From Megalonaias nervosa (Eukaryota; Mollusca; Bivalvia; Unionida; Unionidae), in the NCBI GenBank assembly GCA_016617855.1, contig JAECUM010012946.1:1-64000 (forward strand): a stretch of 64,000 bases of DNA, read 5' to 3'. The notes beneath the pieces were generated by a model. The model was not told the origin of the DNA. It saw only the letters and a list, made by a program, of their open reading frames with translations, and did no database searches. Shown piece by piece: positions 487 to 43,777 of this stretch; the stretch's first letter is position 1, and every line of letters begins with the position of its first letter. The translations under genes and the position numbers were made by a program.

Positions 487-718
487 GGATACATATATAA
501 ATTTAATTCTAACTTATCTCTAAGGGACAGCGCATACACAAAGGGGTCTTCTCTACATTCAACAGATTTTGCACACTCTCCCCCATAATCAACCCCGGGG
601 AGTGCAAAAGTGGTGACATGATGGGAGAGTTTTTTTTCTCTGTTGAAGTTTAAGAGGGCTTGGCAGAGCCCCAATTATTATTAGAAAAACTGGCATTCTA
701 ATGCCACCCCTGACAATA

Positions 719-796
719 TGTCCATTACGGGGAATCGAACCCTAGACCTCGAGTACAAGAGTCAGAAGCATTACCACTGGACCATGAACCTCAGTT
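719..796 (-). repeat. tRNA-like / SINE-head relic
   Basis: On the minus strand there is an A-box-like stretch (tggtccagtgg) and, about 35 bases on, a good B box (ggttcgattcc), the spacing of a Pol III internal promoter. I could not pair the ends into a convincing acceptor stem, so this is more likely a tRNA pseudogene or SINE head than a working tRNA. Confidence 0.5.
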
Positions 797-1199
797 ATAA
801 ATATACGGTTTAGAAATAATTGTATAGTTACCTAGCATTGACTCTGTCAGTGGCGATAAGTATATGCTACCAGATTCTGTGATTAGTATTTACTGTAGAT
901 TCTGAATAAAATGTAAAACAAATCGCGAAAATCAGCAATTTTGCACATTTCTGACTTAGTTAAAACATTATATTCTTAGGCCAGCAAAAACTGTGTTAGC
1001 AATAATGCATGGATCGATATATTATGGTTCTATCCGCATGCAGTCTAGACCAAAAAAAAAATCGATAATGACTATATTACTGAATACAAATGTGTGGTCA
1101 ATGTACGCAATAACGAAAGGGAGACAACTGCTTGATTACTGTATCAGCGAGGACAGAGTTATCTCGCTTCGTCAGACAATGAAAGAACTGTTATTTGTT

Positions 1200-1707
1200 T
1201 TATTCAGAAATAGCAACGTATTTAAAATTTATCCACTGATCGTATTTAACTGAATATGCTGATTTGGTTATTTTTTCTGCAGCACGTTGTACTGAAGGTA
1301 TGCAAATACCAAAATATTTACCAGCCACATACATTGATTGGAAAATTATTTCTTCACCTGTCTCTATTTGTTGATACAACTGATCTTGGAGATTTTTCAT
1401 TATAACCAGATCTTCCAAATTTACAATTCTGGCTTTGTGTAACAACATGCAAATTATTTAAAGAATTATTGATTTTATGACTGTCAATATGATCAATCAC
1501 AAGTCCATCTTCGATGACCCCATGAAAACATTCAAATACAAATCGATGATTATAAGGATGTATTTTATTCCCAGCACAGAATCTGAGATACCCAGTATTA
1601 GTAACATTACCAACTGGCTTTTTTAATCTGCAGTTCCTGATGACACCATAATGAGATGCTTCATAATTTTCAAATATTGGATGTTTCTCAAATTCATTTT
1701 GCTTCAT
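1200..1707 (-). pseudogene. HNH endonuclease with NUMOD-like domains, frameshifted
   Basis: The minus-strand frame starts at 1707. The first part (to about 1356) has an N-terminal segment like NUMOD4 (HPIFENYEASHYGVIRN), then an HNH core with the pattern HRFVFECFHG followed by VIDHIDSHKINNSLNNL, where the conserved His, Asp-His and Asn residues are visible. Near 1360-1370 the frame is lost. The next frame continues to 1200 with a NUMOD1-like tail (SMYVAGKYFGI, then a helix-turn-helix-like stretch). Such proteins are DNA endonucleases of phages, giant viruses and Polinton-like elements. Here it lies at the left flank of the element, pointing outward. The single frameshift makes it a pseudogene unless it is an assembly error. 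Confidence 0.7.
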
Positions 1708-1748
1708 TTATATTATAATACTATTTGTCTAAATGATTATTTTGAAAA

Positions 1749-1934
1749 TCAGGCGAGATAGTCTTCAGCGGTTTTTATGGGAGATTCACCTGATGATTTT
1801 TTATCATAATATCGTTTCAGCTCTCTGTATCTTTTACCCCCGCACTGTACACACAACTGAGTTTTTCCTCATACACCAACACCGCATCATAAACACGGTT
1901 TTGGTCCTAGACTCCCTCTGCGAAAACTTTGCAT
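1749..1934 (-). pseudogene. Small CxxC zinc-ribbon-like protein, two internal stops
   Basis: Reading the minus strand from an ATG at 1934 to a stop at 1749 gives about 61 codons with two internal TGA codons. Around them is a CxxC-like pair (its second position is a TGA), about a dozen residues, then LCVQCGGKRYRELKRYYDKK, so two Cys pairs as in a zinc ribbon followed by a basic tail. At both TGA sites an Arg (CGA) would fit. It lies between the HNH gene and the 148-residue ORF in the mobile element. Family not recognised; a small Zn-binding DNA- or RNA-associated protein is only a guess. Confidence 0.4.
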
Positions 1935-2077
1935 GCGGTAACTACAGAATTCATTTACGCAGGATTTATTACAAGAAAGAGAAAATCCTAACATTAACCA
2001 CTTGCATTTATTATTTGCTTGTATCATTATATATATAATTAAAATCTAATTAAACATATATTTGCCTTAATTATAGC

Positions 2078-2524
2078 ATGGAGAAATTTGAGAGATTATC
2101 CGCAATTGAACCTTCCAGAGCAAGATTCGATCTTGACAAACTACCAAAATCTAAATTTAGTTTTTCGATGCAAGATCTAGCTTTGATAAATAGCGATATA
2201 ACTGATCGTATCTGTGAAGCCAAAAAAGAATTTCACAGCGATGGTGAGGCTCATACTTGGTTGACATTCAGAATTATGGCCGACACCAGCGGTGTTGTCG
2301 ATGTTAGAATGAATGATGAACGAGGAAGAAATATTATCAACTATCTTGATAATCAAAGATATTTTATTCTGATAAAATTTATTGTGCAGACAGATGACAA
2401 CATTTGGATTATCCGTGACAAATGTGACCCTGTACGGCTTCATACTGGAAATAATACTGTTATATTAAATAAAACATCCAAACCAGGAACATTGACTGGT
2501 ATTAATAAACTGTATTTTGAATGA
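2078..2524 (+). CDS. Unknown 148-residue protein of the Polinton-like element
   Basis: An uninterrupted frame from ATG 2078 to TGA 2522-2524. It opens with MEKFERLSAIEPSRARFDLD and is a soluble-looking mixed-charge protein with no signal peptide or membrane segment. I see alternating beta-type stretches (RYFILIKFIVQ, NIWIIRDKC) but no motif I can name. It is the only intact gene-sized frame in the element and sits directly upstream of the polymerase on the same strand, so a replication or virion role would fit. That is inference from position only. The lack of stops in 148 codons, when every recognisable neighbour is broken, may be chance. Confidence 0.55.
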   Translation: MEKFERLSAIEPSRARFDLDKLPKSKFSFSMQDLALINSDITDRICEAKKEFHSDGEAHTWLTFRIMADTSGVVDVRMNDERGRNIINYLDNQRYFILIKFIVQTDDNIWIIRDKCDPVRLHTGNNTVILNKTSKPGTLTGINKLYFE

Positions 2525-2599
2525 GCATATCCTGTAACTGCAGTTGTTTATGCGATATATCCGCTAAATGATAAACCTAGTGTTAATAATCTCAAACCA

Positions 2600-4115
2600 A
2601 TGAAATTGTCCTTGACAGAGTTAAGGCTGAACTGTGTAGCTGAGCAAGTTATAGAACATTTCTCAAAAGCGATACGCGTAAACGGTTTAACAGATCTAAG
2701 ACGTAAAAAAATAAATAATTGGGCAGAAACAGTTAAAGATACCGGTGCATCTATCAGCGACGTTGCTAAGCTAGAAAAATAATTGAGATTGCCAATAACA
2801 GTAAAAACACTAACCGGAGAGATTTAGCATAAATATATACATCAATAGGAGCTGCTATAACGATCATTGATCATAACGCACACGCATGGACATCTGCGGT
2901 AACAATATTTCCATGAGATAGAACAGTTAAATTTTACAGCGATTATATATTTGATTTTATCAACAATATTAGTAAGAGTGACCCTGTATCCGTGTGGTTA
3001 TTTCGAAGTTCAGAATCCATAAATTATGATCAGTTTGTACCACCTAGCGGTGATATTTATCGTGCAGAATTTCTCCACGAGGAAATGAAAAATATTGCTC
3101 GGAAATATACCCCTGACGATGTCATGGTTGAACAATTACTAAATAATTGTTTCAGCGTTCCTTAAGTTGCTGCCCACGCTGCTCAGGAGAAAAATTCATG
3201 GAATCCGACACGATTAGAATTTCTTGAAGATATCCAGCGCAGTTGTATCAAATACGGACACGGCGGATTGTGGAATACTAAATACGATTATAAAGATATT
3301 ATATCGGTTGATATGGTAGCGTGTTATCCTGGAAGTTTTCTTGGATACGGAGAATGTTCTGAGTACTTTAAAAGATTTGGACATCCCACACACAAGATGA
3401 CCAGAGTTGCAATAAACGGACTCTTACCAAATTTTGACTTAACTGGATTTGCTTGTATAGAGTCATTCGAGTTTGCAGAAAATCTGCATCCGATTATTTA
3501 TGTTTGGTTTGGAAGACATTTCTCAGAAAAATATTGGGCTTCAATAGTACTATTACGATATATGCTTGATACTGGAATTTCAGTGTCGTTGAACGTAAAC
3601 GAAGCCATTATATTGTATCATCCGCAGAAACAAGTTTGGTTACCACAGCCAAAGAAATATTCCCTGACAGAGTCAGGTGATGAAAATCCTGATATGATTG
3701 ATTATGAAAATAAAGTTGCAAAAGATCTTGGTAGGAAAATAATTGGTAAATTTACTCAAGGAGGATCATATGATCATAAACGAATGTGTACAAGATTAAT
3801 TATGGATGATATTGAACTCGATTTTATAATTGCTGATACAATGGAAAAAACACATTTATAAGTTGGAGTAATGCTTATTTATCAGATGGAACTAAAGTAG
3901 GTACAATCGTGAGCTATATTGATGGTGAGTCACCGCAATTTACTCATTTAAGATCTTCTATGCTTGCTTACGTTTTGATACATTTATTATCAATGGTAAA
4001 CAGATTCCCTCGTTACACAGTCAGATTTGCCACGGATTCATTTTATATAAATAAAGTGTATACAGATCTGCTAAAACCGTTTTCGGCAATGACGAATGGG
4101 GATCATGGAGGATAA
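2600..4115 (+). pseudogene. B-family DNA polymerase region, broken
   Basis: Consecutive + strand frames look like pieces of one large polymerase. Residues near 3310-3350 read SVDMVACYPG, matching motif A (Dx2SLYP-like) with its metal-binding Asp. Near 4020-4050, RFATDSFYI matches motif C (DTDS-like). The frame between about 2850 and 3861 is open except for TGA at 2914-2916 and TAA at 3163-3165. A frameshift lies between about 3861 and 3870, and another near 4090 where the reading passes into the helicase. The upstream frame from 2600 to 2782 probably belongs to the same protein. Polintons carry protein-primed PolB; whether this one is protein-primed cannot be judged here. Confidence in the family rests on the two motifs and the element context. 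Confidence 0.65.
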
Positions 4116-5210
4116 AACAAGAAAATATACTTGACTATTCCGAATCTGCAGACATTGAAATCAAAGAAATATATTACAGCAATGACAATCAAATATTAAA
4201 ATCATCAGCACCATCTGTGTTTGATCCTGTGGCCAGACATAAAACCGTTTATCTCAATGGGCCTGGAGGTTCTGGAAAAACAACACGTGCCATTGAATTA
4301 TATGGCAGAGTTCTTCAAACTCCGTTGATATGATTGTCCTGACACCTACACACAGACTAGCCAGAGAAATAAATGAACGAGCAGTAAAATCATGCATGTG
4401 TCATGGTTTCTTCTAATGGTGTGGAGATCTGTGGACACCTGAGCAAATGGGGAAAAATATATACCTCAGATTATCATCTAGGATGAAATTTGTACTGTGT
4501 CGCTGGAAACATTAAAACTATTTCTTGATTGGTTACTAACAAGAAATACTGCTGTGATAATGTGCGGCGATCATGGTCAACCGCAACCTTTTGTTGGGCA
4601 GTCTCCACACGAGTGGTTAAAAATGTTTGTGGATTATTATGAGGAGATAACTGATGATCATAGAGCTATTGACGATACCCTGAAAGAATTTAAAAGATTA
4701 ATGAGACTACAGCTAGATAGAATACATTGTGATATAATGTGTGAAATAATTCCGGAAACTCCTGTGAATGATTTTTGGAATTTATGGAGACCAAATGATT
4801 TAATAGTTGCAAGTAGAAAGATGGCTCATGAAGAGAAATTATTTTTGTTACATAAAGAAAAATTTTCAAATCTACCTGTACCATTGTGTTATCGCCCAGC
4901 AGATACTCGATGACAAAATATTGAAGTTGAAATTCCAGGAACAAATGAAAAACAAAATCTTGTATTAAATGATATTGATTTGGTTGTTGTTGATGTTGTT
5001 GAGAGCGTGTTGATCATGGACAAAACTCTTTGAACGTTAGGATATGCTATATTAATTCATTCATCACAAGGACTAACTATTACTGATACAAATATTTGGA
5101 TTGTTGATGATAGAATCGAATGGTCAGATTTAGTTTATCTTGCAGTGTCTTGAGTTAGAAGAATATCTCAACTGCACAGGGTTATTATGAATTTTACAGA
5201 AAATAATAAT
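4093..5210 (+). pseudogene. Superfamily 1 (Pif1/RecD-like) helicase region, broken
   Basis: A Walker A motif, GPGGSGKTT, is encoded at about 4260-4285. Motif Ia-like LTPTHRLA follows after a frameshift near 4330. A DE pair interrupted by TAG at 4479-4481 marks motif II. MCGDHGQPQPF at about 4560-4595 is motif III (GD.xQ). HSSQGLTI at about 5060-5085 is motif V, and LAVS...VRR near 5140-5160 is motif VI, interrupted by TGA at 5151-5153 where helicases of this type have Arg. Other stops are TAA 4414-4416, TGA 4911-4913 and TGA 5031-5033. The helicase follows the polymerase without a gap, so the intact ancestor was probably a polymerase-helicase fusion. Confidence 0.75.
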
Positions 5211-5407
5211 CAAACTGCTAGCAATGGCGTAATAAAAAAAAACTATCTGGTTATAAACAGTGTGACAAAAAAAAATAATCGTGACTTTGATATCGACGCT
5301 GAGTATAGCACTAAAACAGTGACAGAATAATCATTGTGCAAGTTGTAACTGTAATATGATATGGGAATATTTGAATAATAATCCAAGACAGTTCACCGTA
5401 GATAGAA

Positions 5408-6447
5408 TTAATAGTAGTATTGGTCACACGTGAAAATGTGATGCTGACCTGTCTTGAATCTAATCGACGTAGAGGTGCCAGTTAACAAAAGTGAGCGTGG
5501 TGGTAATTGTGTGTCTTCAGGGATTACTTGTAATTGTTCATGTACAAATCCACGCTGAGGAGCATTTGAATCTAGTCTGTATATTGCAGGTCTACCAGTG
5601 GATCTAACCACGCTAGAAATTTTATGTGTAGTCACACTCCAGATAGGATCAGTTGCTCTTTTTTAACCCCCTTCAAGTTCACCAGGTTCATATAAATACC
5701 TCACAGTCACATTACCCAGTACTGGTTGAGAGAGAGAGTCATGTCGTTTTATTGGTATATGTTTCTTTGTAATCGCATTAATTGGTTTCATAGAAATTGA
5801 ACGAGTAATTTCATTATTTAATGCAGCTATCACAGTTGGTAATCTTGCAGCCCATTCACGAGATCTCGTCATTTTGAATTATTTCTTGCGCATACTGATA
5901 TCCAAATAACCGTTCAGTGAGTGTTCGATTAAATCGTTCAACTATTGCCTGATCACAATGAATTGTGGTGTGTCCTCGTCTGATTTTGACATTATGTTTT
6001 TTCATCAAAGATGATACTGTGCCAAGAAATTCTTTGCCAGGATCAACTTGTAGCAACTGTAGCCATCACAAAGGTCCTCGTTGATAAATTCGTTCAAACG
6101 CAGATGCAACTTCAGATGCTGTTTTAGTTGATAATGGTTCTGCTTCTTTATATCTACTTGCAACGTCAATGGCAGTTAACACGTATTTGTATGTGCATGA
6201 TTGACGTCCATGTGTTTTAATGGTATCGTGTGGTAAAAACAAAATATCTGCTTGATGAACCTCATTGGGAGCACTGACATCAAAATGTGCATACTGAATT
6301 TTTTTAGGTGGACGTAGATAGATTTGCCATATTGCCTGTCATGCTAACCAATTTGCAGCAACAATACGTGAGACTTTTGCTGCTTCAGCAAGTTTACTAA
6401 TTGCTGTTCTGCCTCTCCAATATCCACTTGGGCTTTAATAAACTGAT
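5408..6447 (-). pseudogene. Retroviral-type DDE integrase (Polinton class), broken
   Basis: Minus-strand reading from about 6430. An N-terminal helical region is followed by the catalytic core: first Asp in HQADILFLP (about 6265), second Asp in QVDPGKEFLG (about 6045) and Glu in QAIVERFNRTL (about 5950), with DDE spacing usual for rve-type integrases. The C-terminal part has VRYLYEPGELEGG then, after a stop, a segment ending near 5408 that resembles the C-terminal beta domain of this family. In-frame stops are TGA at 6339-6341 and 6066-6068 and TAA at 5663-5665 (plus-strand positions), with a frame change near 5870. The intact enzyme would insert the element DNA. It points opposite to the polymerase and next to the phospholipase gene. 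Confidence 0.85.
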
Positions 6448-6460
6448 TCTAGTTATATAA

Positions 6461-6895
6461 TTAATTACCAACCCCTAGCTTTAGTTTACCCTTCATCGCA
6501 GATTTCACCAGAAAACTAGCAAGTTTTTCTCTGAGAGATTTATCTTTTATAGAATTTAACGCATGAATCAATTTCACATCTGCATTATGTCATTGCTGTA
6601 AATCCTTGCTTTTATACGCAACATCATGAACATGGCACGCTTGATCAGTCGCATTTATTGGATACTGTCCTGGTCTTGGTTGATCTCGTTCGTCAAGTCA
6701 GATATCAAGTCGAGTTCCAGGACCACAATAATTGTATCCGGGTAAATGTTTTTCTCCGGGATACTTCGCCCACGGAGCTCCTGGTAATCTTCCCAACGAA
6801 GTAGCAATATCACCACTTGTTTTTGTAGACTTGTCAAGGGAGATAAATCTGTGTTTGTACTACAATTTTTACACTTGCCTGTTAGTGCGCATTTT
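6461..6895 (-). pseudogene. Parvovirus-type phospholipase A2 domain protein, broken
   Basis: The minus-strand frame contains LPGYNYCGPGTRLD (Ca2+-binding loop of the YxGPGx type) and then DQACHVHDVAY (catalytic His-Asp motif HDxxY). This is the arrangement of the PLA2 domain found in parvovirus VP1 and some other virus-like elements, where it helps breach the endosomal membrane. Two TGA codons interrupt it (plus-strand 6698-6700 and 6590-6592), each where CGA would fit. The likely start ATG at about 6893 has a short Cys-containing leader, then a frameshift near 6835. The frame ends at 6461. It lies immediately upstream of the integrase on the same strand. The motifs are clear; the host protein (capsid subunit or standalone enzyme) is unknown. 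Confidence 0.75.
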
Positions 6896-6993
6896 TTATT
6901 TTTTGTTATTTTTGTTGTTAATCCACTAGTCCCACCAACAGTGGGGGTGGGTGCCTTGCATCAAACACAGTATAGATTCATATTATTTATTAT

Positions 6994-7649
6994 TATGGAT
7001 ATTGACTTCTCAGTGACACAAAAACAGGAGCCACCCAGCGCTACCGAATTCTATCAGGATGATAATAATTGGGCCATCTGGAAGTGGTAAGACGCAATTA
7101 TTGCTTAATTTGATAATGAGATGGCTCAAGTGGGATAAGTTATATTTAGTGGCAACATCTGTAGATGATCAACGATGTTATGAAGTACTTAAAGATTTTA
7201 ATGAAAATGCAAAGTTGCTGGATGAAGATGATAATGATATTATTGATTTTATTACCAGTATTGATGAAGCGCCATCTGTAGATGACCTTGATGGACTTAT
7301 TAATAATTTAGTAGTGTACGATGATATTATGCTGGACAAACAATCAAATCCTGCCAGAATATTTTCGCAAGGTAGACATAAAAATACAGACGTGATTTAT
7401 GTTACTCAAAGATATACGCAAATACCTAAAGTAATCAGAGACAATTGCAATATTTTAGTTGTGTTTAACAGAGTTGATAATCATATGCTGCAAAATATTT
7501 ATTATACTTGGTGTTCAGGGGACATGGAATGATTAAGTTCAAAAACTTTTTTTTCAAAAGCACAAGCTACCCCATTTGGTTTTATAACAATAAATTTACA
7601 TGATCCTGGGTTGAGATATTGTAACAGACTTGATAAAATACTTGGTTAA
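6994..7649 (+). pseudogene. A32/FtsK-HerA-like packaging ATPase, broken
   Basis: From ATG near 6994 about 20 residues run to a frameshift near 7055. The next frame (7059 to 7649) gives the ATPase: Walker A GPSGSGKT at about 7068-7095, Walker B-like LVVYDDIM at about 7310-7335, and RHKNTDVIYVTQRY at about 7375-7415, which resembles the conserved strand and sensor of viral A32-type genome-packaging ATPases. A TGA at 7530-7532 interrupts the last 40 residues, where the frame then continues to TAA 7647-7649. About 215 codons overall, the usual size for Polinton and adenovirus-type packaging ATPases. Divergently oriented to the phospholipase gene across a ~100-bp gap that may have held promoters. 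Confidence 0.85.
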
Positions 7650-9114
7650 TTACAGCAGCAGAGAGGGTGAAACGACCACACATACTTGACCTAGACGTAA
7701 ACAGGTCGTATAAAAATTTGGAAAATACATATCAATGAACGAGTAACAAAAACGAACTAACCCACAAGATTTCGTTAACGCGGTCTGTTTCCCGCAACAA
7801 CGAAATGTGCTCGGTTAATGGATTCGGTTTGACGTTATTGACCCTGTATTTTCAGTCTTTGTAGGAACCTTTATTATTCATAAATAAGGTCTCAGGCAGA
7901 AATGTCTGTTCACCCTCTCTGCTGCTGGTGTACTAGAGAAAGGATTATGAGCAACAGGAAGATCACAGAGGCAGTTACAAGTAACAACGGCAGCCTTTTT
8001 GCGGGCCAGGCAAGTTATAGGCAGCTGTATGTCCTTAACTTCTGCAGGCAGGCCTGGAGGGGAGAGGAAATATGGTTTCACGTTCCCCAATCCTCCAGCC
8101 AACTGTCAGTGACTTGCCTCCCCTCCCACCTGGTTGCAAACATCCTGTGGGCACCAGAATTTTTCTGTTCTGCCAAATTTGGAACAATCTATTTCTGACA
8201 AATGATTGGACCATCTAGCCCCCCCTCTGCTTTTTGTTAACTCCCCATCCCCTTTCTTAGTAGTGTACCCAATTTGTGCTCTTTCATTTGGTGTCAGTCT
8301 CAACCCTTAGACCCTCATCAAGACAATGTCCAACTGCCAGACATCCTCCTTCGCATTGATGGCAGTGTACTTGGATAATATTCTATAAAAGCATTCAATA
8401 AGTTCGGTTTGGTTCACAATATGAACAACCTTCTGTACTTTATTTGCAGTTAGGTTGGATAGTCAGTGTCCCATCTCTACATTTTGTTTATCAAGGTATG
8501 GAGGTTGTAACTTTTGTAAACCTAGTTTGTTTTCCTCTCAAATGCATGAACAGTTTTACATGTGCCCTCTGCAGATGGCCCTTCTGGCACATTGGCACAC
8601 AATCTCATTTGAAGTTCATCCTTTCAGTACAGCAGTCAGTGTGATCCTGATGCAGGCAGAGGTTGGATGCTCAAGCATTTTCTCCCCTCTTACCTATTGA
8701 CCTAATATTAATGTGATTGGGTAATTTGTTTTGATGGAGAAAGGATATTTTTATGTAAATTATGTTTCTCAGAAAATATTTACCTGATCACATTACTGTC
8801 AATTTCTTTCACCCTTTCCCACATTGTGAACACCCAGTTCTAGGTTTTGCTCAAGTTTACTGGTTACATCTGGGATGCAGGTGGGCACCTAGCACAAGGA
8901 GAGTTAATCTACTTGTTACTTCCCTTAGCGTATATAATATGTAGATGGAATGATGGTCTTTCAGGGAGGGCTGGATTCTGAGGTAGCCAAGTATCACTGG
9001 ATTCCTAGTTAGCAGAGAAGAATTTAATTTCATAATGTTAATGTGATCTGGTAATTATTATAAAAAACCCAACCCATAAATTACCAAATAATTTCTTTTA
9101 GTGTTTTCTTTCAG
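7650..9114. other. No recognised gene; old repeat-like DNA
   Basis: Unique-looking and diverged repeat DNA after the ATPase. Around 8700-8800 an imperfect inverted pair (taatgtgattgggtaa and ttacctgatcacatta) resembles phrases near 9040 and 18890-18975, so part of it belongs to a dispersed family. I see no motif-bearing frame. Confidence 0.5.
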
Positions 9115-20100: not shown

Positions 20101-23100
20101 TTTATTAGCATTACTATAAGTTCTTGTTAAATTTCCTCTTTGTATTCTAGGGAAATAATTTATTTGTTGAATTTTACAAAACTCATTGGTTTTCACTCTT
20201 TTCTTTTACTTTGTGACTGTGGAGTCGAGTCAGTTTACATGGAGAGACATGTAATCCAGTGTGAGTGTCAATCCAACAGAATCAACTTTTTGCTTTGCCA
20301 GAGGACCATGTGCTTGACCTTTGGACAGTACTGTTTTGAAATTTGTTGATTTCATTTAAATACACTTCTGTTTGCAAAATTAATTATTTTTTGTATTTTG
20401 ATATTTTTCACTGGTGATAAGTGATTCATTGCTTGACAGTTTATTTAAATAGTTTTGGTAAGTGGTTATTAATAATATTGACATGGAATTTAATGACAGT
20501 GTGATAGTGTTATAGCTGTTCAGAATTTTGATTCTTTCAAGGTGATAAAAGCTGAGACCAGAAAAAGGTTAATGTAAATACATTTGTAGTTTTTTCTTTA
20601 TTTTAAGGTTACAGGATAAATAAAATACACGATTGGTATACTTTATAGTATAGTTTACTTCAGCAAGTCCTTGCTGTGTTATGGTTTTCTAACCCTAAAC
20701 CAAATGAGTCACATATTCAAAGACACTTGCCTTGTATTTTAAATGTATGTGACAGTTGTTTTTCCTGATTTCAGGCCTTGGAGAGTCTCATCTCCATCAT
20801 CAAGTTAATGGGATCCAAGTACATCAGTGCAATCAGGCACAAAGTCATGAATACACTCAGGTAGCCAACTTGTAATTCTTTTTTAAATTTTGATGTCTTG
20901 TAAGCATTGGTAACTTGTGAAAGATGTGTATGACCCTATTCATTGCATGAATTTTTTTGAAGGCATTGTTACTAGTGAGCAATAAAAAGACAATGAACAG
21001 TTTGACAAAGAATCAGAAAAATACCAGAATGCAACCAGAATTCATCATTTGTAAAAGAAAATACTGAAACATTATCTTGAAAGTGATTTTTTGTATCGCA
21101 AATAAGGATATAATGCAACCTAGTTTTCCTACTTAAGTCACTTTTGACCAGTAATAAAACTGGCTGGATACATAGATACACAATCCTGACAAGTAAGAGT
21201 TCTATTTTTCTGACAAAATATTTTATATATTTGGTAAAATTTATTATTTTCAGCAGTTAATGAATTATCTGGGCAGGGGAAAAGTAGTTATATTTTAATG
21301 ACTGGATATTTTGGTCCGTTAAGGCAATTTAATATTGGGAAAATGCAGATGCTGCAGAAATCTGCTACTTTAAGCACACACCCCGCCGAAATGTGTGTTT
21401 CTTATTGCCCTGGTTGTAAAATTAGGGTAGGCAGGTAGTTTTTTTATACAAAAAATTAAACATATTATAATGATAATTTAATAATAACTTGACTACAGTG
21501 CTAAGATAAATCATTGGAATAAATTGAATACATTCATCATAATTGTTATTCATAATATACAACTTAAAATTGTCAGCAGCTGAGGCAAAAAGTCTTGTAA
21601 CGAATATGATACAATTTGTCACACCGTAGAAATATTTTTGAATACAACTAATAAGAACAGTATCAGTTTTGGTAAATATATGTAAGTACTTCCAGAAATA
21701 GGAACAGTTAGCTATGAACTTTTGCGTGTCTTTGCATAAATTGTAGGAAATAAAAAAACACATCATTGGTAGTACCATATATACTCATTTACAAGTCAAG
21801 TCAAACTGGAAACAACAAAGATCGTTATCTGCCATAGCACAGTATGTCTGCAGATCAGGCAGTATGATGCTTTTTACTCCTAACAAATTGCACTGACCCA
21901 GATCTGCCTACGAATTGTGTGTTTGTGGATCTGGGTCTGTGCATTTTGCAGTTTGACTTATAAGTAAGTATATATGGTATATGAAACATTGATGCATGTC
22001 ATTTTACGTTTTCCGATATATGTGTATATCTCTCTCTCTCTCTTTATATATATATATATATATATATAGATACGATGTCCTCAGCATTTCACATTGAAAA
22101 CACAGTGTAAACTAATATTTGGTTTGAAAACAAAACTTTTGTATGCAGCATTGATATGGCAGTTACATTTGAAAATATATGAGTCTGATACAAGTCCAAT
22201 TTTTAGCCCAAAGGGAACATAGTCCACTTTGAAGAACACTAGTTGAAGGCTATATTGCATTATAAATGGAGTAAGTTGACTATGGAAATAGGACTGTTTT
22301 TTTTCTTTTAGGATGTCTTGTAACGTGCAGCTACACAAAATAGTTTGCATTTTGATGTTATACACTATGTCTGGGTCAACAAGATTGAATAAAGTATTAA
22401 AAACTATGACTTTAGATGTTTGGGCTTCCAGGATGAAAATAAAATGATTGGAATTATTGAGAAAATTTCTTGTTGGATGTCTGATTTAGTCCAGTAAAAA
22501 ATGGAAATGCAGTTTTTAGAGTTAGGTAAGATACCGATACAGCATTGTAATGCAGTGGAACCATTGTAATCTGGCAGTGAAGGATCCACAAATTTAACTC
22601 ATAATGGACAGTCAGTTGGAATACTCTGAATTAGTAAGGTCTTTGCATGAGTAAGGTCTCTGCATTAGTAAGGTCTCTGTGTTAGTAAGGTCACTGCATT
22701 AGTAAGGTCACTGTCACTGCATTAGTAAGGTCTCTACATTAGTAAGGTCTTTGCGTTAGTAAGGTAGCTGCATTAGTAAGGGCACTGCATTAGTAAGGTA
22801 GGTCACTGCATTAGTATGGTCACTGCATTAGTAAGGTCTCTACATTAGTAAGGTCTTTGCGTTAGTAAGGTAGCTGCATTAGTAAGGTCACTACATTAGT
22901 AAGGTCTCTACATTAGTAAGGTCTTTGCATTAGTAAGGTCACTGCATTAGTAAGGTCACTGCATTAGTAAGGTAGGTCACTGCATTAGTAAGGTCACTGC
23001 ATTAGTAAGGTCTCTACATTAGTAAGGTCTTTGCATTAGTAAGGTAGCTGCATTAGTAAGGTCACTGCATTAGTAAGGTCTCTACATTAGTAAAGTCTTT

Positions 23101-26100
23101 GCATTAGTAAGGTCACTGCATTAGTAAGGTAGGTCACTGCATTAGTAAGGTCACTGCATTAGTAAGGTCTCTACATTAGTAAGGTCACTGCATTAGTAAG
23201 GTAGCTGCATTAGTAAGGTCACTGCATTAGTAATGTCTCTACATTAGTAAGGTCTTTGCATTAGTAAGGTCACTGCATTAGTTAGGTCTCTATATTAGTA
23301 AGGTCTTTGCATTAGTAAGGCCACTGCATTAGTAAGGTCACTGCATTAGTAAGGTCTCTACATTAGTAAGGTCATTGCATTAGTAAGGTCACTGCATTAG
23401 TAAGGTCTCTGTATTAGTAAGATCTAATGTAAAGGTGATAAGACAGGCATAATATTGTGATGATATATGCTGGGATTCTGAATGGGGTAAATTATTTGGT
23501 TGTCACTGCTTATCAGTACCTTATATACTTGCTTATAAGACGAGTCCAACTGCAAACTACACAGACCCAGATCTGCCAGTGCATAGTGGTTCTGTGCAGT
23601 TTGTTAGGAGTAATCAATAAAACAAAACAACATAGGCCCGATTTGAAGGTGCATTATGCACTTGCAGATCAGGATCTTTGTTATTTGCAGTTTGACTCAA
23701 CTTAAAAGTGAAGTGAGTGTATACAGTATTTGTACTGCAATTATAGGAATACTCTATATACTTGCTTTTAATTTGAATCCAACTGCAAACAGCATGGACC
23801 TAAATATGCCATTGGATAGTGTGCCAGCTGATCATAGTCTTTGTTCTGCTGATTACTCCTGACAAACAGTATAGACCCAGATCTGCCGGGGCATCATGTT
23901 GTGGTGGAGCTGAGTCTATGTAGTTTGCAGTTGGACCTGATTTATAAATGTGAACATTTACAAGCCTGGTTTTTATCATTTCCAGGATTGGTTTGCAGTA
24001 TACAGACACAGAGTTTGTGGAGATTTCTTGCAGGGCCTGGAACTGTTTTGTCAGAAGGTAACATTCTTGATAACTTTTTCATTATATCTGTTTTGATTAT
24101 AGACTTAGATATCACATTCCAGAGGCAGTGGCAGTACTGGTTACATTGTCATTACTGTTAACCAAGTTAAGATTGTGCTTTCAGGTTTTTCTGAAAGTTG
24201 TGTACTAAATTAAATCTACTTAGAAAGTTTTTTGGGTTGTTATAAAAGAGATCTAAACTGTGAATTCATTCAATAAAACTATGGATATGATGGCTTATAG
24301 ATAGCATTTTTGCCTTTATGGATATGATGGCTTATAGACAGTATTTTTGCCTCCACAATGTCTGTTGGAAGGCCTATTGTTAGTACACCATTCCCTCGAT
24401 AGCTCGTGCCCTGATAACTCTCGAACCCACGTATAACATGGGGTCAGGCATGGATCCCATTTTTTAAAAACCAAAAATACCCCAAATATTGATCCCTATT
24501 TGTTGATTTTAAGAAAACCAGGATCAAAATTGGTAACTGAAACTTTGATATATTACTCGTTTTATCTTTGAAAACAGTAGATAGGACCTGGGGAATTTAA
24601 TCAATGTTATGAAATTATCAACTTTTAATAAGAAGTCATATAATTTGTTATATTTTCTTTCTAAACAACATTCTTAGTACACTAAATAACAATAGTCAAT
24701 GAAGTTTTGATCAATGAAAACGTCACTTACTCCTAGTGGGGACAGTTCTTTAATAAATAAATACCAATTATACTTTTTATCAAGTGAAATTTGTGTTTTG
24801 TTTCTATTTTCTAGTTCCTTTTAAATGTAATCAGCATAAATGCAATGTGTCCTGTTCTATTTAAACGTAAAATGTGTCAATCTACCGTAAGAGCTATGTC
24901 CGCAAGTATTTCTCTGAGAACCTAATTAAGTGCCAACCGTGTTTTGATATCTGGCTTGAGGAAGTATTTGTATTATTGTTCACTAAATTTAAAGCTTCAC
25001 ACTCTACAACCACAAAAATCGTTGACATAATCCACAAATGTTTTCACATACACATGATGATTGTTGAAACCAGTTGGAATAATATTAATGATCTTTCAAA
25101 TGATGAGCATCTTGGAAATAAATGAAATTTAGGCAGAATAACAGACAACATCATTAGAAAAAGCACTTTATTGACAATTATTCTTGACATAATTATAAAA
25201 CAAGGACTCAGTGATTAAACAAGCCAGTTCCCACCCCCTGCAGTTTTCTTGAAGGCTAGAGGGGATAGTATCCCTTTTTTTTTTTTTTAAGGTCCCTCGT
25301 TAACATGCACCCTTGCTTATAGTGCAGTCTATGTTCTTGGACCCCATTGTGCATGAGTTAATGAGGAGAGGTGTATATGTGCCACCACAGTGTCTATGGA
25401 AAGGCCTATTGTCCATATTTGTGCCTCCACAGTGTCTATGGGAAGGCTTATTGTTAGTATTTGTGCCACTACAATGTCTATGGGAAGACTTACTGGCAGT
25501 TTTTGTGCCTCTACAGTGTCTATGGGAAGGCTTATTGTCAGTGTTTGTGCCATCACAATGTTTATGGGAAGGCTTATTGTCAGTATTTGTGCCTCCACAG
25601 TGTCTATGGGAAGGCTTATTGTCAATATTTGTGCCCCCAGTGTCTGTGGGAAGGCTTATATACAGTATTTGTACTACCACAATGTCTATGGGAAGGCTTA
25701 CAGAGAGTATTTTCACCTCCACAATGTTATAGGAAGGCCTATTGTCCATATTTGTGCCTCTACAGTGTTTACAGGAAGGCTTATGGTCATTATTTGTGCC
25801 ACCACAGTGTCTATGAGAAGGCTTATTGTCAGTATTTTCACCTCCACAGTGTCTATGGGAAGGCTTATTGTCATTATTTGTGCTACCACAATGTCTGTGG
25901 GAAGGCTTATTGTCAGTATTTTCACCTCCACAATGTCTATGGGAAGGCTTATTGTCATTATTTGTGCCACCACAGTGTCTGTGGGAAGGCTTATTGTGAG
26001 TATTTGTTCCACCACAATGTCTATGGGAAGGCTTATTGTCATTATTTGTGCCACCACAGTGTCTATGGGAAGGTTTATTGTCAGTATTTATGCCTGCACA

Positions 26101-29100
26101 ATGTCTGTTGGAAGGCTTATTGTCCTTATTTGTGCTACCACAATGTGTGATGGCTTTTTGTCAGTATTTGTGCCTCCACAATGTTTCTGGGAAGGTTTAG
26201 AGTATTACCTATGTGCATCCATTTCATCCCATCTCATCATGTCCCAACTTATTCTGTCCTATCATGTCCCATCTGATCCCATCCCATCATGTCACATGAC
26301 CCATCCTGTAATTTCCCATCACATCCCATCATGTCTGGCACAAATTCATATGAGACTTTACAAAAATGTCTAGATTGATCTGATATCAGTTTTTATGGCA
26401 TTATATTCCCTGTTTGACTGTTAACTTTGCCCTTCCAGCTCATGTCTGTTCACTAACTTTTGAAGAACTTCTGTAATTGTAATTGAATTTGGAATGAGAC
26501 TTTACAGTAAAAAGACCTAGTCAGGTTCGATTTTTCCTTTTTTGGAAAACGTTGTATGAAGTTGGCCTTTGTTTGATCAAAAACCTTGCTTTGCATTTTG
26601 TTTCCTCATGATAACATTTGAAAGACTTAATGGATTGGAATCAACTTTGGTACAAGGTTTTACATAAGAAATGTAGGTCAGTTTTAATTTTCATGATTTT
26701 CCATCAGAAGATTACAGTTTTAGCCCCAGTTTAAATTGCCCTAAACTGTCTGCTTAATAAATTTCAAGGATTTCATGGATTGAAACTGAGTTTAGGCATG
26801 ATGCTTTATCTAAGTAGAGGTTGATTATTTTTCTCCTTTTTTGGCCAGAATTTTTAATGGAGTCATGGCTCCATGTTTCATTTAGAACCGTGCCTCTTTT
26901 GTCTTTGGTTGGTTTTCACATTTCTTCTGTCTCTCAGTATTTGCTCTGCTTTCCTACTAATATAGGATGAAAGCAGCTCAAGCATGTGTGAAGATTACAT
27001 ATGTATGTGTTTGTTCTTAGTTTTGCACAGCTCCTTCCAGATGGTTTGAAAAAGAGACATTAAATTGTGGGGTATGATTAGGGTTGGTTTGTAGACATGT
27101 GCAATGACCATAAACTTTGGAGGGAGGAGAGTAAATTAGAAAAAGTGAAGAACCATTTGCCTTATGGCAGATTTCAGTTGTAATTATCGTTACTTTTATG
27201 CCCAAATCTGTTGGGGTATTGCTGAAGTTATAACATACAAAAACCAAAGAATATAAAAATTCCCAATATCATCGCTAGGCAGTAGGATTTTGTGGTAAAT
27301 ATACAAGGTGTATAACTCTAGTCATTTTAGAACACTAATTAGGAAATGGTTAGTTAGCCCAAGACTGATATGTATGACATTTTCCTTTTTCTACCCCCTT
27401 TTCAGCCTGGAGCTGCCCTTTTTGGGTCAAATGATGCCCCAGATTGTGGCCACTCTACTTCCCCTCCTAGAACGCTTGCCCAAGCAGGTGGCAGACATCT
27501 TCAATTTTATGATTGTTGAGAATAGGTAAGCAACAGGAAACTTGCATGTGGATTTTTTTCTTCTTTGAAACCAGATATTTCATAGCTGTATTAAAAGTGC
27601 CGATATTTTGATGTGAAATAACTTAAAAGTAAAGTCATTTTAAAAAAATTTTGTACTATCTTACCTTTCATGATTTTTAAAATGCTACAGTAATCCACTT
27701 TGATTCATAATGAGAAATTCACTTGATTACAGTTTTAAAAGAGATTTATTTCAACACTTAGTAATAAGTTTGAGTTTGCAATAAAAGTGACCAATCATGA
27801 AGTGACTTTTTGGAGACACATATACTACAATATATGGGAGATCACCTGATTTGAGATATATGCTGCAGTACAAGTGGAACCACTGGATGGGTTGGGTTTG
27901 GATTTTGTGTGTTTAATACCATTTTTCAGCTAAGGGTAGGCTATACATGATGGTGGGTATATTTGGTGGAGGAAGAACCAAGGCAACCCATGGGAAGAGA
28001 CACTGACCCACAAGAAGCTACTGGCAAACTTTTTCACATAACTGCGTTGGCTGAGCTGAGTCTCAAACCCACTTGGATAGAGGTGAGATGTTACTGATCT
28101 GAAAAGGTGAGCAGCATGGATCATTCAGTCACCGGGGTGCCTGACCTGATGGGAGACATATACTTCAGTATAAGTTCCCACCTGATGCAAAATATATACA
28201 GCAGTACACCATTCTCTTGATAATTTGCACCCTGATAACTTGTGAACATGCTTATAACTTGGTGTCTAGTGTGAATCCTGTTTTTTTTTTAAAGAAAAGA
28301 TTTTTAAAAAATTGGTCACTGTGTTGAATGTGAAGAATATCTCCAACAAAATTGGTAAATGAAACCTTGATACATCGCTCGATTTATTGTTGAAAAGGGT
28401 GGTTAGTGCCCAGAAAGTTAGAATCAGCATCAAGTTATTATTAGAAATCACATTTTCTTTGATGTTATTGGAAAAATATTCTTTTGATATACTGTAAATA
28501 ATAATATATGGCAAAATAGCAATCAATGAAAATTTCTGGTAAATGCTAGCAGGTGGCAACACTGAAAGAAATAAACACCAGTTAAATATGTCTTGTTAGT
28601 CAAAAGTCATGTTTTAATGATTTATTCCATTTGCAATGTAAACAATATAAAAGAGGTAAGTTTATCCTGCTCTATTGGCACATACCAAAAAGTTTATTCT
28701 GGACTGTCAACAGCACAGAATTAACATCCTGATCTGTAAATGGCACTGTAACCAGAAAGATAAAAATTGGGGCATCAATGAAATAGAGATGAGCACAAGT
28801 CAAAGGCCAGATGTAGGTTTGGGGTGCATAGAGTTGGGGCAGGGCACCATAACCCTTAGTACCTGATTAGGATGAACATTAAATTGGTTCTTATTGTCCA
28901 GAAATTAAAATAAAGTTAAATTTATTAGCTATAATGAAATATTATATCCATAACCAAACTACACATTACATCAGAGAAAGTTTACAGTGAAGGACAACTA
29001 TAGTAGAACTGTCAGGTTGTCCACTACAATGAAGAATATATTTGCCAGGTATACCACTACAATGAAGAATGAATTTGTCAGGTGTACCACTACAATGAAG

Positions 29101-38100: not shown

Positions 38101-41100
38101 GCATTACCATTGTATGTGTGTATGAAGAGCATCATAACTGGCATTACCATTGTATGTGTGTATGCAGAGCATCATAACAATGGCATTACCATTGTATGTG
38201 TATATGAAGAGCATCATAACAATAGCATTACCATTGTATGTCTGTATGAAGAGCATCATAACAATGGCATTACCATTGTATGTGTATATGAAGAGCATCA
38301 TAACAATGGCATTACCATTGTATGTGTGTATGAAGTATCTTATGTGACACTTGAAGTGAACTAGTTGGATTCAGTTGCATTAATTTTGTTTAATTACCGT
38401 GACAGTTTAAAAGAAATATTGGAACTATTATATATGGAAGGGAAGTTAAAGTTATAGGACAAAAATAAGAAAATTGTCTTGCAACCAATGAGTTGGTGAG
38501 GAATAGATCATTGTTCACCCAATCTTCCAGTTATTTCTGTATAGAAATGATACTATGCATATCTAATTAAAAAGTAACTTTGTTTGATCTAAGTCAAAAT
38601 GTGTTGGGGTTTTTTCATTGCTGCTTCAGATTCTTAATAGGTAACAGTTTTTCTTTTCATTGGTGGTGGTCATAACCATGCAAGTATTTAGTAACAATGT
38701 GTTTAGTTGTGGTTTGTTAACAATTAGATGATTATTACAACTTTCTGCTTAGTATCCAGCCATCTCATTTTCTCCACAAAATGTAAGTACAATGATGTCA
38801 TAGTAGCAGGTGGAATTAAACATTGTTGACTTTATGTTTAGATTTTGTCTATGTGCTTGTCAGGTTGCTAAATGTTTGGACAGTTCATCATATCCAAAAT
38901 ATACATAGCATATAACATAACTGCTGCTTTACATTCCATGCCTATTTTTTATTCACTAGAATAACTGACATAATGAATGCACTAGGGATCTTTCTGAGTT
39001 CACATGTGTTAGTTTCAGCATGAATCTTATGTCGGCTTTGGATTAAACTTTGTTTTCTTAGGAACTGTCTATTTTGTATGTACACAGGGGATTGGGTTTG
39101 AACTTTAAATATTTGTGCATAGGAGTAGGGATAAGACCAAGTAATACATACACACCTAATAACAAAAACTTATTAAAGCTACAATAAAACCTCTTTGCCA
39201 TAGCCAACAACAAACAACCTATAGTATTTTCACACCTTCCAATTTGTTTGTACCCCTTACCAATTTTAAAAATGAAAAGCGTCAAGGGAAGAAGTTGTAA
39301 ATTTGTGCAGTACATCATTTTCAATTGGTCAATGAGAAGGCAGTCAACCATTCAGCATACAGTACTTGCATATTAAACGGGTGTGATCATGGCCCATCAG
39401 GTCATGTGAAAAGGGAGAGACATGTCCTCCCTTGTAGCTTTTTATAGTACATATATAACTGATAAGTAAATTGTAAGCAACTAGACGAGCCCCTGTGTCC
39501 TTTTTTGGTTTTGAGAACAGATGACACATAGCAGTCAAAACTGTCATCTGCATCCAGTATTTGCAATGTAGAGTTTTAAAAATAATGAACAAAAAAAATG
39601 TAACTCCAAAATGTACGGAATTATTGAGATTATCAAACACAGTGAATGATCACATCTTTTGCTTGAAAACAGGGACTTGCCTGTGCAGATATGGAGACTG
39701 TGTTACTAAAGAAACTCCCATTTGATTCAAAATACAAACAAGTTGACAGTGTTTGAAGGGGTGGGGTACTAAGCAAAAGCATATGTACACTCTAGGGAGG
39801 GGGTAGAAATAACTACACCCTGCAGTTGGAGTGGTGGGAGGGAATGACTTTTTGCATATGTACAAAATGGACAGCCCTTTATCCTCATCTGGAATAATAA
39901 CTCTTATTTGGCCAGAAATGATGATGAGATAAAATAGTTTTAGACTTTTGTGGGGGTTTTTTTTCTTTTAATTGAAAGGTTGGAATGACTGCATGAAATT
40001 TAAATTATTTTTACACAATTATTATATAATTTATTTTATTTTTGCCGTTATATCTCTGGTACACACACACACACACAGACACACACAGACACACACACAC
40101 ACACACATATATTAATTGAGCTTAAGTTAAAAGTCCCCCCCCACAATCAATGCCAACATGGGCAAGGCACTTTATTCCAATGCCCTGGTGCTAAATCAGT
40201 AAATAACCAGTTTCAGCACTTGGCATTGTAATAGAATAAATGGTTTTATCTTAGATTCCTAGAAATTCTTATTGGTCATTAGAGTGTGCTTCCCTTTGAA
40301 AGACTTTTTTAACAGTTTCAAAATATAGTTGCTCCATCTGTCACAGCCTAGATGACTTTTTATTGCTTTTTTTACAGACAGAAATCCAAGAAAGTGTCAG
40401 TACTGTCATATCAAGAATCATTGTGGTGGACCAGTTGGTGACTTTAGTACAAAACAACTTCTATACATATTGACATATAAGATACAGAAGCTGAACTGAG
40501 GTTACTGAGGAAGAAACTGCCATCAACAATGCAAGTGCTGCTCTTAAGAAAAAGGCCACCAAATTAATTTCAAAACTTGTTGCAGAATGGTGTCATCCAG
40601 AAAGTACAAAGTCAAACAGTGGTTGTTTTATTTAGGTGATGTTAATAAATTGTACAAAATATCATAAGGTGTCTTTGAAGGATTTCCTGGGTAAAAAATG
40701 TTACAATAAAAATTGGTATGTGTATACATCTCAACAAAAGTCTGTATAATGTTACTCTGATTGCACTACCAATCCAGTGGGTGAGGGGATTCATGTTTAT
40801 AATACAAAGCTGTTGACAGAGTTACTCTGATTGCACTACCAATCCAGTGGGTGAGGGGATTCATGTTTATAATACAAAGCTGTTGACAGAGTTACTCTGA
40901 TTGCACTACCAATCCAGTGGGTGAGGGGATTCATGTTTATAATACAAAGCTGTTGACAGAGTTACTCTGATTGCACTACCAATCCAGTGGGTGAGGGGAT
41001 TCATGTTTATAATACAAAGCTGTTGACAGAGTTACTCTGATTGCACTACCAATCCAATTGGTGAGGGGATTTTTGTTTATAATGCAAAGCTGTTGACAGA

Positions 41101-43777
41101 GTTACTCTGATTGCACTACCAATCAAATTGGTGAGGGGATTCATGTTTATAACGCAAAGCTGTTGACAGAGTTACTCTGATTGCGCTACCAATCCAATGG
41201 GTGAGGGGATTCATGTTTATAATACAAAGCTGTTGACAGAGTTACTCTGATTGCACTACCAATCCAGTGGGTGAGGGGATTCATGTTTATAATGCAAAGC
41301 TGTTGACAGAGTTACTCTGATTGCACTACCAATCCAGTGGGTGAGGGGATTCATGTTTATAATGCAAAGCTGTTGACAGAGTTACTCTGATTGCACTACC
41401 AATCCAATGAGTGAGGGGATTCATGTTTATAATATAAAGGTGTTGACAGAGTTACTCTGATTGCACTACCAATCCAATGGGTGAGGGGATTCATGTTTAT
41501 AATGCAAAGCTGTTGACAGAGTTACTCTGATTGCACTACCAATCCAATGGGTGAGGGGATTCATGTTTATAATACAAAGGTGTTGACAGAGTTTCCTTCA
41601 ACAGCAGGTAGTTTTAAAAGTCATTCAGCTTGTGCATTTACATGTTATGTCACATGTACCTAAATTACAATGAAGAGTGCACATTTTAGTATCTTGTTCA
41701 CTTTTGCTGAAATGTGGGGTCACATTTTGGTATCATAGCATGAAACATAGTTATAACACTGGTAACCATTATTGAGCATTGACTGATTATGTTCAGGATT
41801 TAAGTATATGTGTATTAGGGGTTATCTCATATAGTTCCAATTTTTAATAATGCTTATCAATTCTTTTCTTATTTTACGGGTATCTATCTCTGTGAACCCA
41901 TGGCATTATGATACATAAAGGGATTTCCTGAAAAATTTGCCCATTTTAAAATATCTGAATTAAAAAATGAATCCCTTAAAATTGTCAAGATGTAAAATGT
42001 TGAAAGAAGAAAGATTTACTGGTTCTATTGTTATTTCTGTTAACTTTGTTTTAGCAGTTTAAATTACCAGAATACATGTTCAGAATGGAGAGTTTGCCAT
42101 TTATGGATGCCATTTATTGATGTTTATGGAATTTCAGATTGAGCATTGGTCATTGCATTAAATGTTAATGTCATACATGTAATTGAAGTCCCAACATGTC
42201 AGTGATCCTGAGCATTCAGTTTTTAAAATCACATTTGCTGCCATGAGCCTGTTGCTACGATCTAGGTACATGTCCGTGTATTCATAATCTGTAAGATAAC
42301 AAATGTGAATGTAGATACAAGGGTTAGGGTCAACACTGCTTGTGTTAGCTTCGTTTCAGATGGAAGTGTCATTAATAATATATTGAGTTCAATGTTTGTT
42401 GGTTAACTTTACTGGGTCACAAATTACATGTGGTCATGGATATTCTTGACAAACTTGAATTTCTTAAGTAAAGTTTGGACAATTTATTGTTTTTAACTTG
42501 TTAAGGATTGGAACACAACATTTTACACTGATGTAAGAAATCATTTTGGTAATATATTTTGAAATAAAGATGTTAAATTGAATGCTGTTTTGAAGTATTA
42601 TGTAGACCCCTTCCCAACTATAAATAATAAGGCATAAAGAGCCATGCATAATTTAGTAGAAATGTTGCATATAATGTAGATCAGTATATGGTGACCTTGT
42701 CTATCACATTTTTCATCTCCTACAAAAAGGATTATTGAGTGGTCGTAGAATAGCATTTATGGCAGAGGAGTGACTGTCAATACTAATAGCATTTCAGATG
42801 TGCTAAATGTTTTGGAAAAAGAGAAGGTATAAAGAAGAATGTAGACATTGTAGCAATCCTGCATGCATGTCATGGTTTTGCAATATACACCTAGGCATGT
42901 TAAATACTCTTTCTCTGCAGCCATAACAACTTTAATAAACACCAGTCATCACTCAGATGTGCCAGTTTTTGACTCTCAGCCAGAAATGCTCCATCTTCGC
43001 TAGCCAAGGTTCTGATAACCCTATCTACACCTTGGCAGATCGAACAGCTTTATCATTGCTTTGTCCTAGCGACATCTATTGGATTTCAAGTGTTGCCTCC
43101 CTTAGTATGTAATGCCAACTATCCAATAGCATTGTGCATTGTACATTGGCTGAAAACAGTGGTGTCAATTGACCTAAAAAGGATACTTTATACTTTGTAA
43201 GTTTAACATCGAAAGTATGACTGTGTACCAGAAGGAAGCCATTACAGGTCAATTTGAGTGAAAGGTATTTGTGCAAACCAGCACTGGAAAAGTGCTTATT
43301 TATCAGTCCATTCAAGTTGTGTGCTCCCTTTGTCTCGATCATGTAGGAACAGTGTTCAGATTTGAACAGCTTAATTTTGATTGGATGCAGTGGCTTCACA
43401 GACCTGAAGCACAAAAATATCTGCTCGATATGCCAAGGTGTAGATAGGGTTATCAGAACCTTGGCTAGCGAAGATGGAAATACTCATACTTAACAAAGCC
43501 TATTGTTGCAACAAAACATACTGACCAGAAATAATAATTCTGGCAGCCAGATTTAGGTTTGTTATTTTATATTGGAACACTTTGGCTATCTATAATCTGG
43601 CAATGGACCCAGCCCTTGTACACTCTAACATAAACATAATGAACTAACTGGAGCTGGTCTGCTAGAGATAGTCCTACAGAAATGCACATTAGATTTAGAA
43701 CTATAATCTTGAATAAAATGTTTACCAAAGTAACATAAGTGCATAACATAAGTGCAATTTATAAATTTTAATTACAG

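What the first reader, a model, noticed from the sequence alone, without database searches (positions are those of the whole stretch)
1000..7870. Polinton-like element combining PolB-helicase, DDE integrase, packaging ATPase, HNH nuclease and phospholipase A2
Motifs for all five enzyme types are visible within 6.7 kb. A polymerase followed directly by a superfamily 1 helicase is not the textbook Polinton layout, which has a protein-primed PolB without a linked helicase. A parvovirus-type PLA2 domain adds a link to virus entry. The mix suggests a little-described lineage of Polinton-like viruses in an invertebrate genome. The novelty is inference; I cannot search databases.
Basis: partly seen in the sequence, partly recalled or inferred. 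Interest (0 to 1): 0.9.

Follow-up and report, generated by a model that had tools for sequence, protein, structure and literature searches.

The report
Mussel-type polinton virus with polymerase-helicase
The stretch is the right half of a decayed copy of a roughly 16-kilobase virus-like jumping element that fills an animal genome with thousands of copies and copies its DNA with an enzyme type known so far mainly from viruses of single-celled organisms.

Summary
Window ~600-7926 (perhaps from base 1) is a broken copy of one integrated element, cut on the left by the contig start and ending on the right in a terminal inverted repeat. HNH, replicase (palm fused to an SF1/PIF1-type helicase), rve integrase, PLA2 and A32-type packaging ATPase are present. 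They are not neighbours by chance: 14 of 20 fetched copies show the whole order, 16 of 20 replicase-integrase-PLA2-ATPase. The left halves of three copies carry a double-jelly-roll capsid gene. Two complete copies measure 16,372 and 15,939 bp, each with a 5-bp target duplication. The genome (2.19 Gb) has 3,345 exact hits to a PolB pattern and 7,760 to the terminal motif. The replicase fits the Tlr1-like pPolB-S1H type (vOTU-like Cys/His motifs, phi29-like palm, motif C without its first Asp, helicase behind), known from protist viruses, Tetrahymena Tlr1 and transpovirons. PLA2 in Polintons is also in print. The closest named relatives are freshwater mussels; a sea slug, Hydra and fungi are more distant. 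New here are the combination in an animal genome and its scale. Virions are inferred; the host species is unknown.

The parts
600..7926 (+). right half of one degraded element copy; bases 1-599 probably belong too (AT-rich array), but this is not certain; the contig starts at window base 1
   Evidence: window = C10860:1-64000; match to other copies; right TIR
1203..1707 (-). HNH endonuclease gene, one frame change (1357-1707 then 1203-1397)
   Evidence: PF13392 E 6.5e-12; PHROG HNH families; matched in 18 of 20 copies
1710..2050 (-). small cysteine-rich (zinc-finger-like) ORF, about 100 aa in several other copies, broken in the window
   Evidence: 19 sequences incl. window examined; a minus-strand frame of 90 aa or more in 12 of them; phase pattern; zinc-finger reading is by eye
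2078..2521 (+). N-terminal part of the replicase, position of a terminal-protein domain; fold not tested
   Evidence: matched, sometimes in part, in 20 of 20 copies
2525..3162 (+). vOTU-like part of the replicase (Cys in LNCVA, His in DHNAHAW), more than one frame
   Evidence: protease assignment by motif only
3166..4112 (+). pPolB palm (pieces 3166-3858 and 3846-4112; motif C reads FATDS)
   Evidence: homologs; fold of the relative P0050; letters
4070..5327 (+). SF1 (PIF1-type) helicase pieces: Walker A GGSGKT, motif V/VI region
   Evidence: fused to the palm in unbroken relatives P0029, P0049, P0061, P0067
5323..5400 (+). C-terminal HNH-like motif behind the helicase (NHCASCN...), as in relative P0067
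   Evidence: 17 of 21 sequences; by motif, no Pfam hit
5411..6434 (-). rve (DDE) integrase, broken; the pieces 5411-5662 and 6342-6434 are assigned to it by position and conservation, not by profile
   Evidence: PF00665 E 2.4e-6 for 6069-6338; no significant Pfam hit for 5411-5662
6464..6859 (-). parvovirus-type phospholipase A2 domain, two in-frame stops
   Evidence: (PF08398)
6995..7649 (+). A32-type genome-packaging ATPase (start codon inferred from the sequence)
   Evidence: PF04665 E 3.5e-13
7630..7926 (.). right terminal inverted repeat; 18-bp end motif AGCAGCAGAGAGGGTGAA (reverse strand) at its outer end and again, inverted, near its inner end

Best explanation
A polinton-like virus element of about 16 kb, integrated and amplified to thousands of copies in an animal (probably bivalve) genome; the window shows the broken right half of one copy. 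Likely cycle: the linear DNA with inverted terminal repeats is copied by a protein-primed palm polymerase helped by its own fused SF1 helicase. A vOTU-type protease domain in the same protein frees the priming domain. The rve integrase inserts the linear DNA with a 5-bp staggered cut. A double-jelly-roll capsid with penton-like and protease proteins is filled by the A32-type ATPase. The PLA2 opens the endosomal membrane on entry. SHOWN by sequence: gene set, order, fusion in relatives, TIRs, 5-bp duplications, copy number, third-position signature. INFERRED: priming, cleavage, packaging, PLA2 entry role, virions, activity today.
Confidence: 0.85

Rival explanations
1. It spreads now only as a self-synthesizing transposon in the germ line; the capsid genes are passengers or make no particle.
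For: Thousands of copies in one genome. No true relative found in IMG/VR contigs in seven scans (the single hit L001 is a phage artefact). No particle data.
Against: MCP without a stop in the matched stretch in 80 of the 124 scored copies (my count). Third-position excess in the capsid region: MCP .167/.100/.237 in 3 sequences, penton-like .107/.084/.303 in 4. PLA2 conserved, which makes sense mainly for entry. MCP relatives of 450-499 aa in short contigs of 1.5-5.8 kb, whose nature is unknown.
Confidence: 0.4
2. Canonical Polinton or adintovirus whose helicase belongs to a neighbouring gene.
For: rve integrase, DJR capsid, A32 ATPase and PLA2 all occur in Polintons (PMC4642659, PMC11071308 passages).
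Against: Palm and helicase in one unbroken ORF in P0029, P0049, P0061, P0067. 55 of 141 proteins and 15 of 21 genomic sequences show a motif C of the searched form, and none reads DTDS. Upstream of the palm the model does not align with phi29 exonuclease in 4 of the 5 phi29 rows.
Confidence: 0.05
3. Unrelated elements inserted side by side.
For: Genes on both strands, many frame breaks.
Against: Same order in 14 of 20 copies on different contigs, common ends with TIRs and target duplications.
Confidence: 0.01
4. The contig belongs to a protist, parasite or other contaminant of the assembly.
For: The replicase type is so far a protist/virus type; genome unnamed.
Against: 3,345 PolB hits spread over many contigs of a 2.19-Gb assembly. 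Window carries an ATR-kinase-like exon at 60.5 kb (E 1.2e-4, below cut-off). Relatives in chromosome-scale records of Sinanodonta woodiana.
Confidence: 0.06

Closest known systems
Tlr1 element of Tetrahymena and PLVs with Tlr1-like helicase (pPolB-S1H)
   Same: palm fused to C-terminal SF1 helicase, motif C without first Asp, vOTU Cys/His, HNH or GIY-YIG behind the helicase in some, rve integrase and packaging ATPase and capsid proteins in Tlr1 (PMC11071308, PMC4642659, passages read)
   Different: here in an animal genome, with a parvovirus-type PLA2, about 16 kb, thousands of copies; no direct sequence comparison with Tlr1 was possible
Polinton / Maverick of animals
   Same: rve integrase, DJR capsid, A32 ATPase, TIRs, size, PLA2 in some (PMC4642659)
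   Different: replicase has a fused helicase and no exonuclease was recognised; 5-bp target duplication against 6 bp (6 bp is recalled)
OmPLV of Oxyrrhis marina (PMC12721341)
   Same: SF1 helicase fused to pPolB, endogenous, several copies, decaying
   Different: there the helicase is N-terminal and the exonuclease is kept, with a tyrosine recombinase and no rve integrase detected; here the helicase is C-terminal
Adintoviruses / meldviruses (PMC11071296)
   Same: animal-associated, rve integrase, OTU-bearing PolB, adenain-type protease class
   Different: no fused helicase is mentioned for adintovirus PolB in the passages read; hexon relationship not tested
Transpovirons
   Same: pPolB-S1H replicase
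   Different: structural module lost; giant-virus associated (PMC11071308)

Membership tests
Tlr1-like PLV (pPolB-S1H) | SF1 helicase fused C-terminally to a pPolB palm | tested here: met
   unbroken relatives P0029, P0049, P0061, P0067; same order of pieces in the window and copies
Tlr1-like PLV (pPolB-S1H) | protein-primed type of palm | tested here: met
Tlr1-like PLV (pPolB-S1H) | first Asp of motif C missing | tested here: met
   motif found in 55 of 141 proteins and 15 of 21 genomic sequences, none DTDS (the others lack the region or the searched form); window reads FATDS
Tlr1-like PLV (pPolB-S1H) | vOTU with Cys and His | tested here: inconclusive
   motifs NCVA in 15 of 21 and H.xHAW in 12 of 21 sequences; no profile or fold support
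Tlr1-like PLV (pPolB-S1H) | C-terminal HNH or GIY-YIG (in some members) | tested here: inconclusive
   NHC..CN motif in 17 of 21 sequences; Pfam lists no HNH in P0067
Tlr1-like PLV (pPolB-S1H) | phylogenetic grouping with Tlr1/PLV replicases | not tested
   no such sequence was obtained; 7 viral scans gave none
Polinton/Maverick (bona fide) | rve integrase | tested here: met
   PF00665 E 2.4e-6, 28.2 bits against a cut-off of 32.6 for one piece
Polinton/Maverick (bona fide) | DJR major capsid protein | tested here: met
Polinton/Maverick (bona fide) | A32/FtsK packaging ATPase | tested here: met
   PF04665 E 3.5e-13
Polinton/Maverick (bona fide) | adenain-type protease | tested here: inconclusive
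   PF00770 E 0.011
Polinton/Maverick (bona fide) | stand-alone pPolB without helicase | tested here: not met
Polinton/Maverick (bona fide) | exonuclease domain before the palm | tested here: inconclusive
   not recognised in the P0050 model, whose first 40 residues are poor
Polinton/Maverick (bona fide) | 6-bp target site duplication (recalled) | tested here: not met
   5 bp at 2 of 2 copies
Adintovirus | hexon recognisable by BLASTP; integrase with chromodomain | not tested
   no adintovirus sequence was compared
Parvovirus-type PLA2 domain (PF08398) | calcium loop and His-Asp motif | tested here: met
   (YCGPGT 13 of 21, C..HD 14 of 21 sequences)

The most novel reading that the evidence does not exclude
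A separate, family-level group of animal (bivalve) polinton-like viruses that carry the Tlr1-type polymerase-helicase, still spread as PLA2-armed virions between hosts, and have turned a few per cent of one mussel-type genome into provirus.
Probability: 0.35. Interest if true: 0.78.

Novelty: new variant of a known kind. Interest (0 to 1): 0.62.

Why it matters
Polymerase-helicase (pPolB-S1H) elements are described from protists and giant-virus satellites in the papers I could read. Finding the type with integrase, capsid genes and PLA2 inside an animal genome, in thousands of copies, links the Tlr1 branch to animal hosts. It also makes the open question whether polinton-like viruses leave the cell as virions in animals directly testable in a genome with very many fairly similar copies. 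If every one of the 3,345 PolB hits were a full-length copy, the family would fill about 55 Mb of the 2.19 Gb (arithmetic); truncated copies lower this and copies missed by the exact pattern raise it.

Tried and rejected
Side-by-side insertion of unrelated elements: rejected by synteny. The viral contig L001 holds phage structural-type genes (my reading) and is taken as a chance match. IMG/VR scans with the PolB, helicase, ATPase and integrase pieces and alignments A1, A3, A4 gave no true relative; GTDB contigs gave none. These scans depend on a few short peptide patterns, so absence is weak evidence. Profile A2 had no PDB sequence match; the two single window pieces tried had only chance-level ones. 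The tRNA-like stretch at 718-790 was not confirmed by ARAGORN or Rfam. I first took bases 1-400 as certain element; with the low-complexity filter on, the match vanishes, so this is now left open. The 1720-2052 stretch, first taken as a non-coding control, was not flat and proved to hold an ORF, and 6340-6463 overlaps the integrase start, so the TIR and 700-1190 serve as controls. My pattern for motif A was too narrow for the copies (1 of 21) and is not used; the two motif C listings at the end of that script came out empty. Host identity was not settled. The first-reader idea that the polymerase-helicase layout is unusual was corrected from the literature: it is, for Polintons, but not for Tlr1-like PLVs. 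Searches for an animal pPolB-S1H element in print, listings only, none found; the 2016 Krupovic paper on the fusion was not held, nor the adintovirus paper.
Full report
WHAT WAS CHECKED. The window is contig C10860 from base 1 of an unnamed 2.19-Gb genome in 54,709 contigs. Open pieces were searched apart. Pfam gave HNH_3 (E 6.5e-12), rve (2.4e-6) and Pox_A32 (3.5e-13), and PF08398 PLA2 in two consecutive open pieces (E 3.5e-4 and 1e-3). The palm piece had 47 homologs at E <= 1, and the unbroken relative P0029 shows palm and helicase in one frame. A search with P0029 gave 97 proteins at E <= 0.01, itself included. Named ones are Sinanodonta woodiana (P0049, 71% over 71%; P0050, 47% over 95%), Elysia marginata (P0061, 39%), Glomeromycota (Racocetra, Gigaspora, Paraglomus) and many 'Candidatus Thiodiazotropha' bins, which I take to be clam host DNA (inference).

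ONE ELEMENT, MANY COPIES. A palm search of the own genome scored 150 of 17,280 first-look candidates; all 150 matched at E < 1e-130 and 84-100% identity (the window's own copy is the 100% one); 68 of the 150 had no stop in the matched stretch (my count). Twenty of them, chosen for contig length and partly for long open frames, were fetched. Fourteen of 20 have the complete order HNH(-), replicase(+), integrase(-), PLA2(-), ATPase(+). L011 and L012 show no HNH hit and a shortened replicase start, and L011 has an inverted piece of the replicase beside it. L010, L019, L024 and L029 are truncated or rearranged. Coverage between copies ends sharply a little after the ATPase and runs on to the left of the window's content. 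Left halves of three copies end at a repeat that matches right ends in reverse: TIR, 250-290 bp, 96.4% (C52006) and 93.5% (C2972) between the two ends of one element; the third, C3088, shows no right TIR. The window's TIR is 7630-7926, 83% to the C2972 left end. Both complete copies are flanked by 5-bp duplications, AATGG and CTATT; their lengths from these coordinates are 16,372 and 15,939 bp. An exact PolB pattern occurs 3,345 times (1,669 + 1,676) and the 18-bp end motif 7,760 times (3,861 + 3,899), with 0 for the reversed patterns. No further piece of the element was found in window 7927-64000. On the left of the window, the match to other copies is solid from about base 600; 1-400 is an AT-rich array whose match rests on low-complexity sequence.

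SELECTION AND AGE. Between copies, differences per codon position are .066/.047/.119 (palm, 21 sequences).057/.058/.128 (helicase piece, 19).090/.051/.211 (ATPase, 19).072/.058/.138 (integrase piece, 20).079/.045/.191 (PLA2, 19).185/.140/.245 (HNH, 19).167/.100/.237 (MCP, 3) and .107/.084/.303 (penton-like, 4). The TIR and 700-1190 are flat, while 1720-2052 and 6340-6463 are not and overlap coding stretches. So these copies mostly diverged while coding mattered and broke later. In the palm piece the closest pair is 98.1% identical, the median pair 92.2%, the lowest 87.5% (21 sequences). No absolute date is given.

TREE. In a tree of 38 rows the window's palm piece groups with P0001 and P0041 (99/97) inside a 9-row clade with Sinanodonta (100/100). 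The other 29 rows hold a 4-row branch with the Glomeromycota and a 24-row branch with Elysia, the Thiodiazotropha bins and unnamed rows. The root is for drawing only, and 15 rows fill under half of the columns.

LITERATURE. PMC4642659 (passages) states that some Polintons encode lipases closest to the parvovirus PLA2, and that Tlr1 has an rve integrase and PIF1-like helicase. PMC10120064 (passages) finds that animal Maverick-Polinton capsids form one cluster except those of Cnidaria; the Hydra relative here may fit that exception, but I did not test it. PMC11071296 (passages) describes adintoviruses and chimeric meldviruses. PMC10294476 (passages) lists Mavericks in all analysed mollusc genomes; the two passages seen do not describe this type. 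PMC12220804 and PMC10707223: passages only. The 2016 paper on the fusion was not held, so an animal case there cannot be excluded.

VERDICT. The replicase type and the PLA2 are known; their union with rve integrase and DJR capsid in an animal genome, at thousands of copies, is a new variant. Virions and present activity are not shown.

Noticed in passing
7653-7676 / 7904-7927 and genome-wide: TIRs carry two inverted copies of the 18-bp end motif, in many listed places 150-250 bp apart; some such pairs may stand alone, so the TIR could move by itself like a MITE. The exact-match list (first places only, of 7,760) cannot decide this.
   Followed up: partly
718-790, minus strand: tRNA-like stretch with A- and B-box-like letters (by eye); the surrounding 100 bases match 15 of the 20 fetched copies, one of them reversed, but ARAGORN and Rfam do not call it.
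   Followed up: partly
L011, L024, L029: Parts of the element lie in inverted orientation next to the copy, suggesting replication- or recombination-made inverted duplicates.
   Followed up: no
G000: At least two capsid protein classes seem to coexist: matches of 78-80%, often with 473-aa frames, and of 82-85%, often with shorter frames.
   Followed up: no
60486-60863, plus strand: Exon-like ORF matching the M-HEAT region of the kinase ATR (PF25030, E 1.2e-4, below cut-off).
   Followed up: no
55436-57698, 22624-23425, 25373-26199, 40751-41593, 53155-53714: Many minisatellite arrays, e.g. a 19-bp unit in 121 copies.
   Followed up: no
several of P0017-P0047; Fragments of this replicase are deposited as proteins of 'Candidatus Thiodiazotropha' bins, probably animal DNA in bacterial bins.
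   Followed up: no
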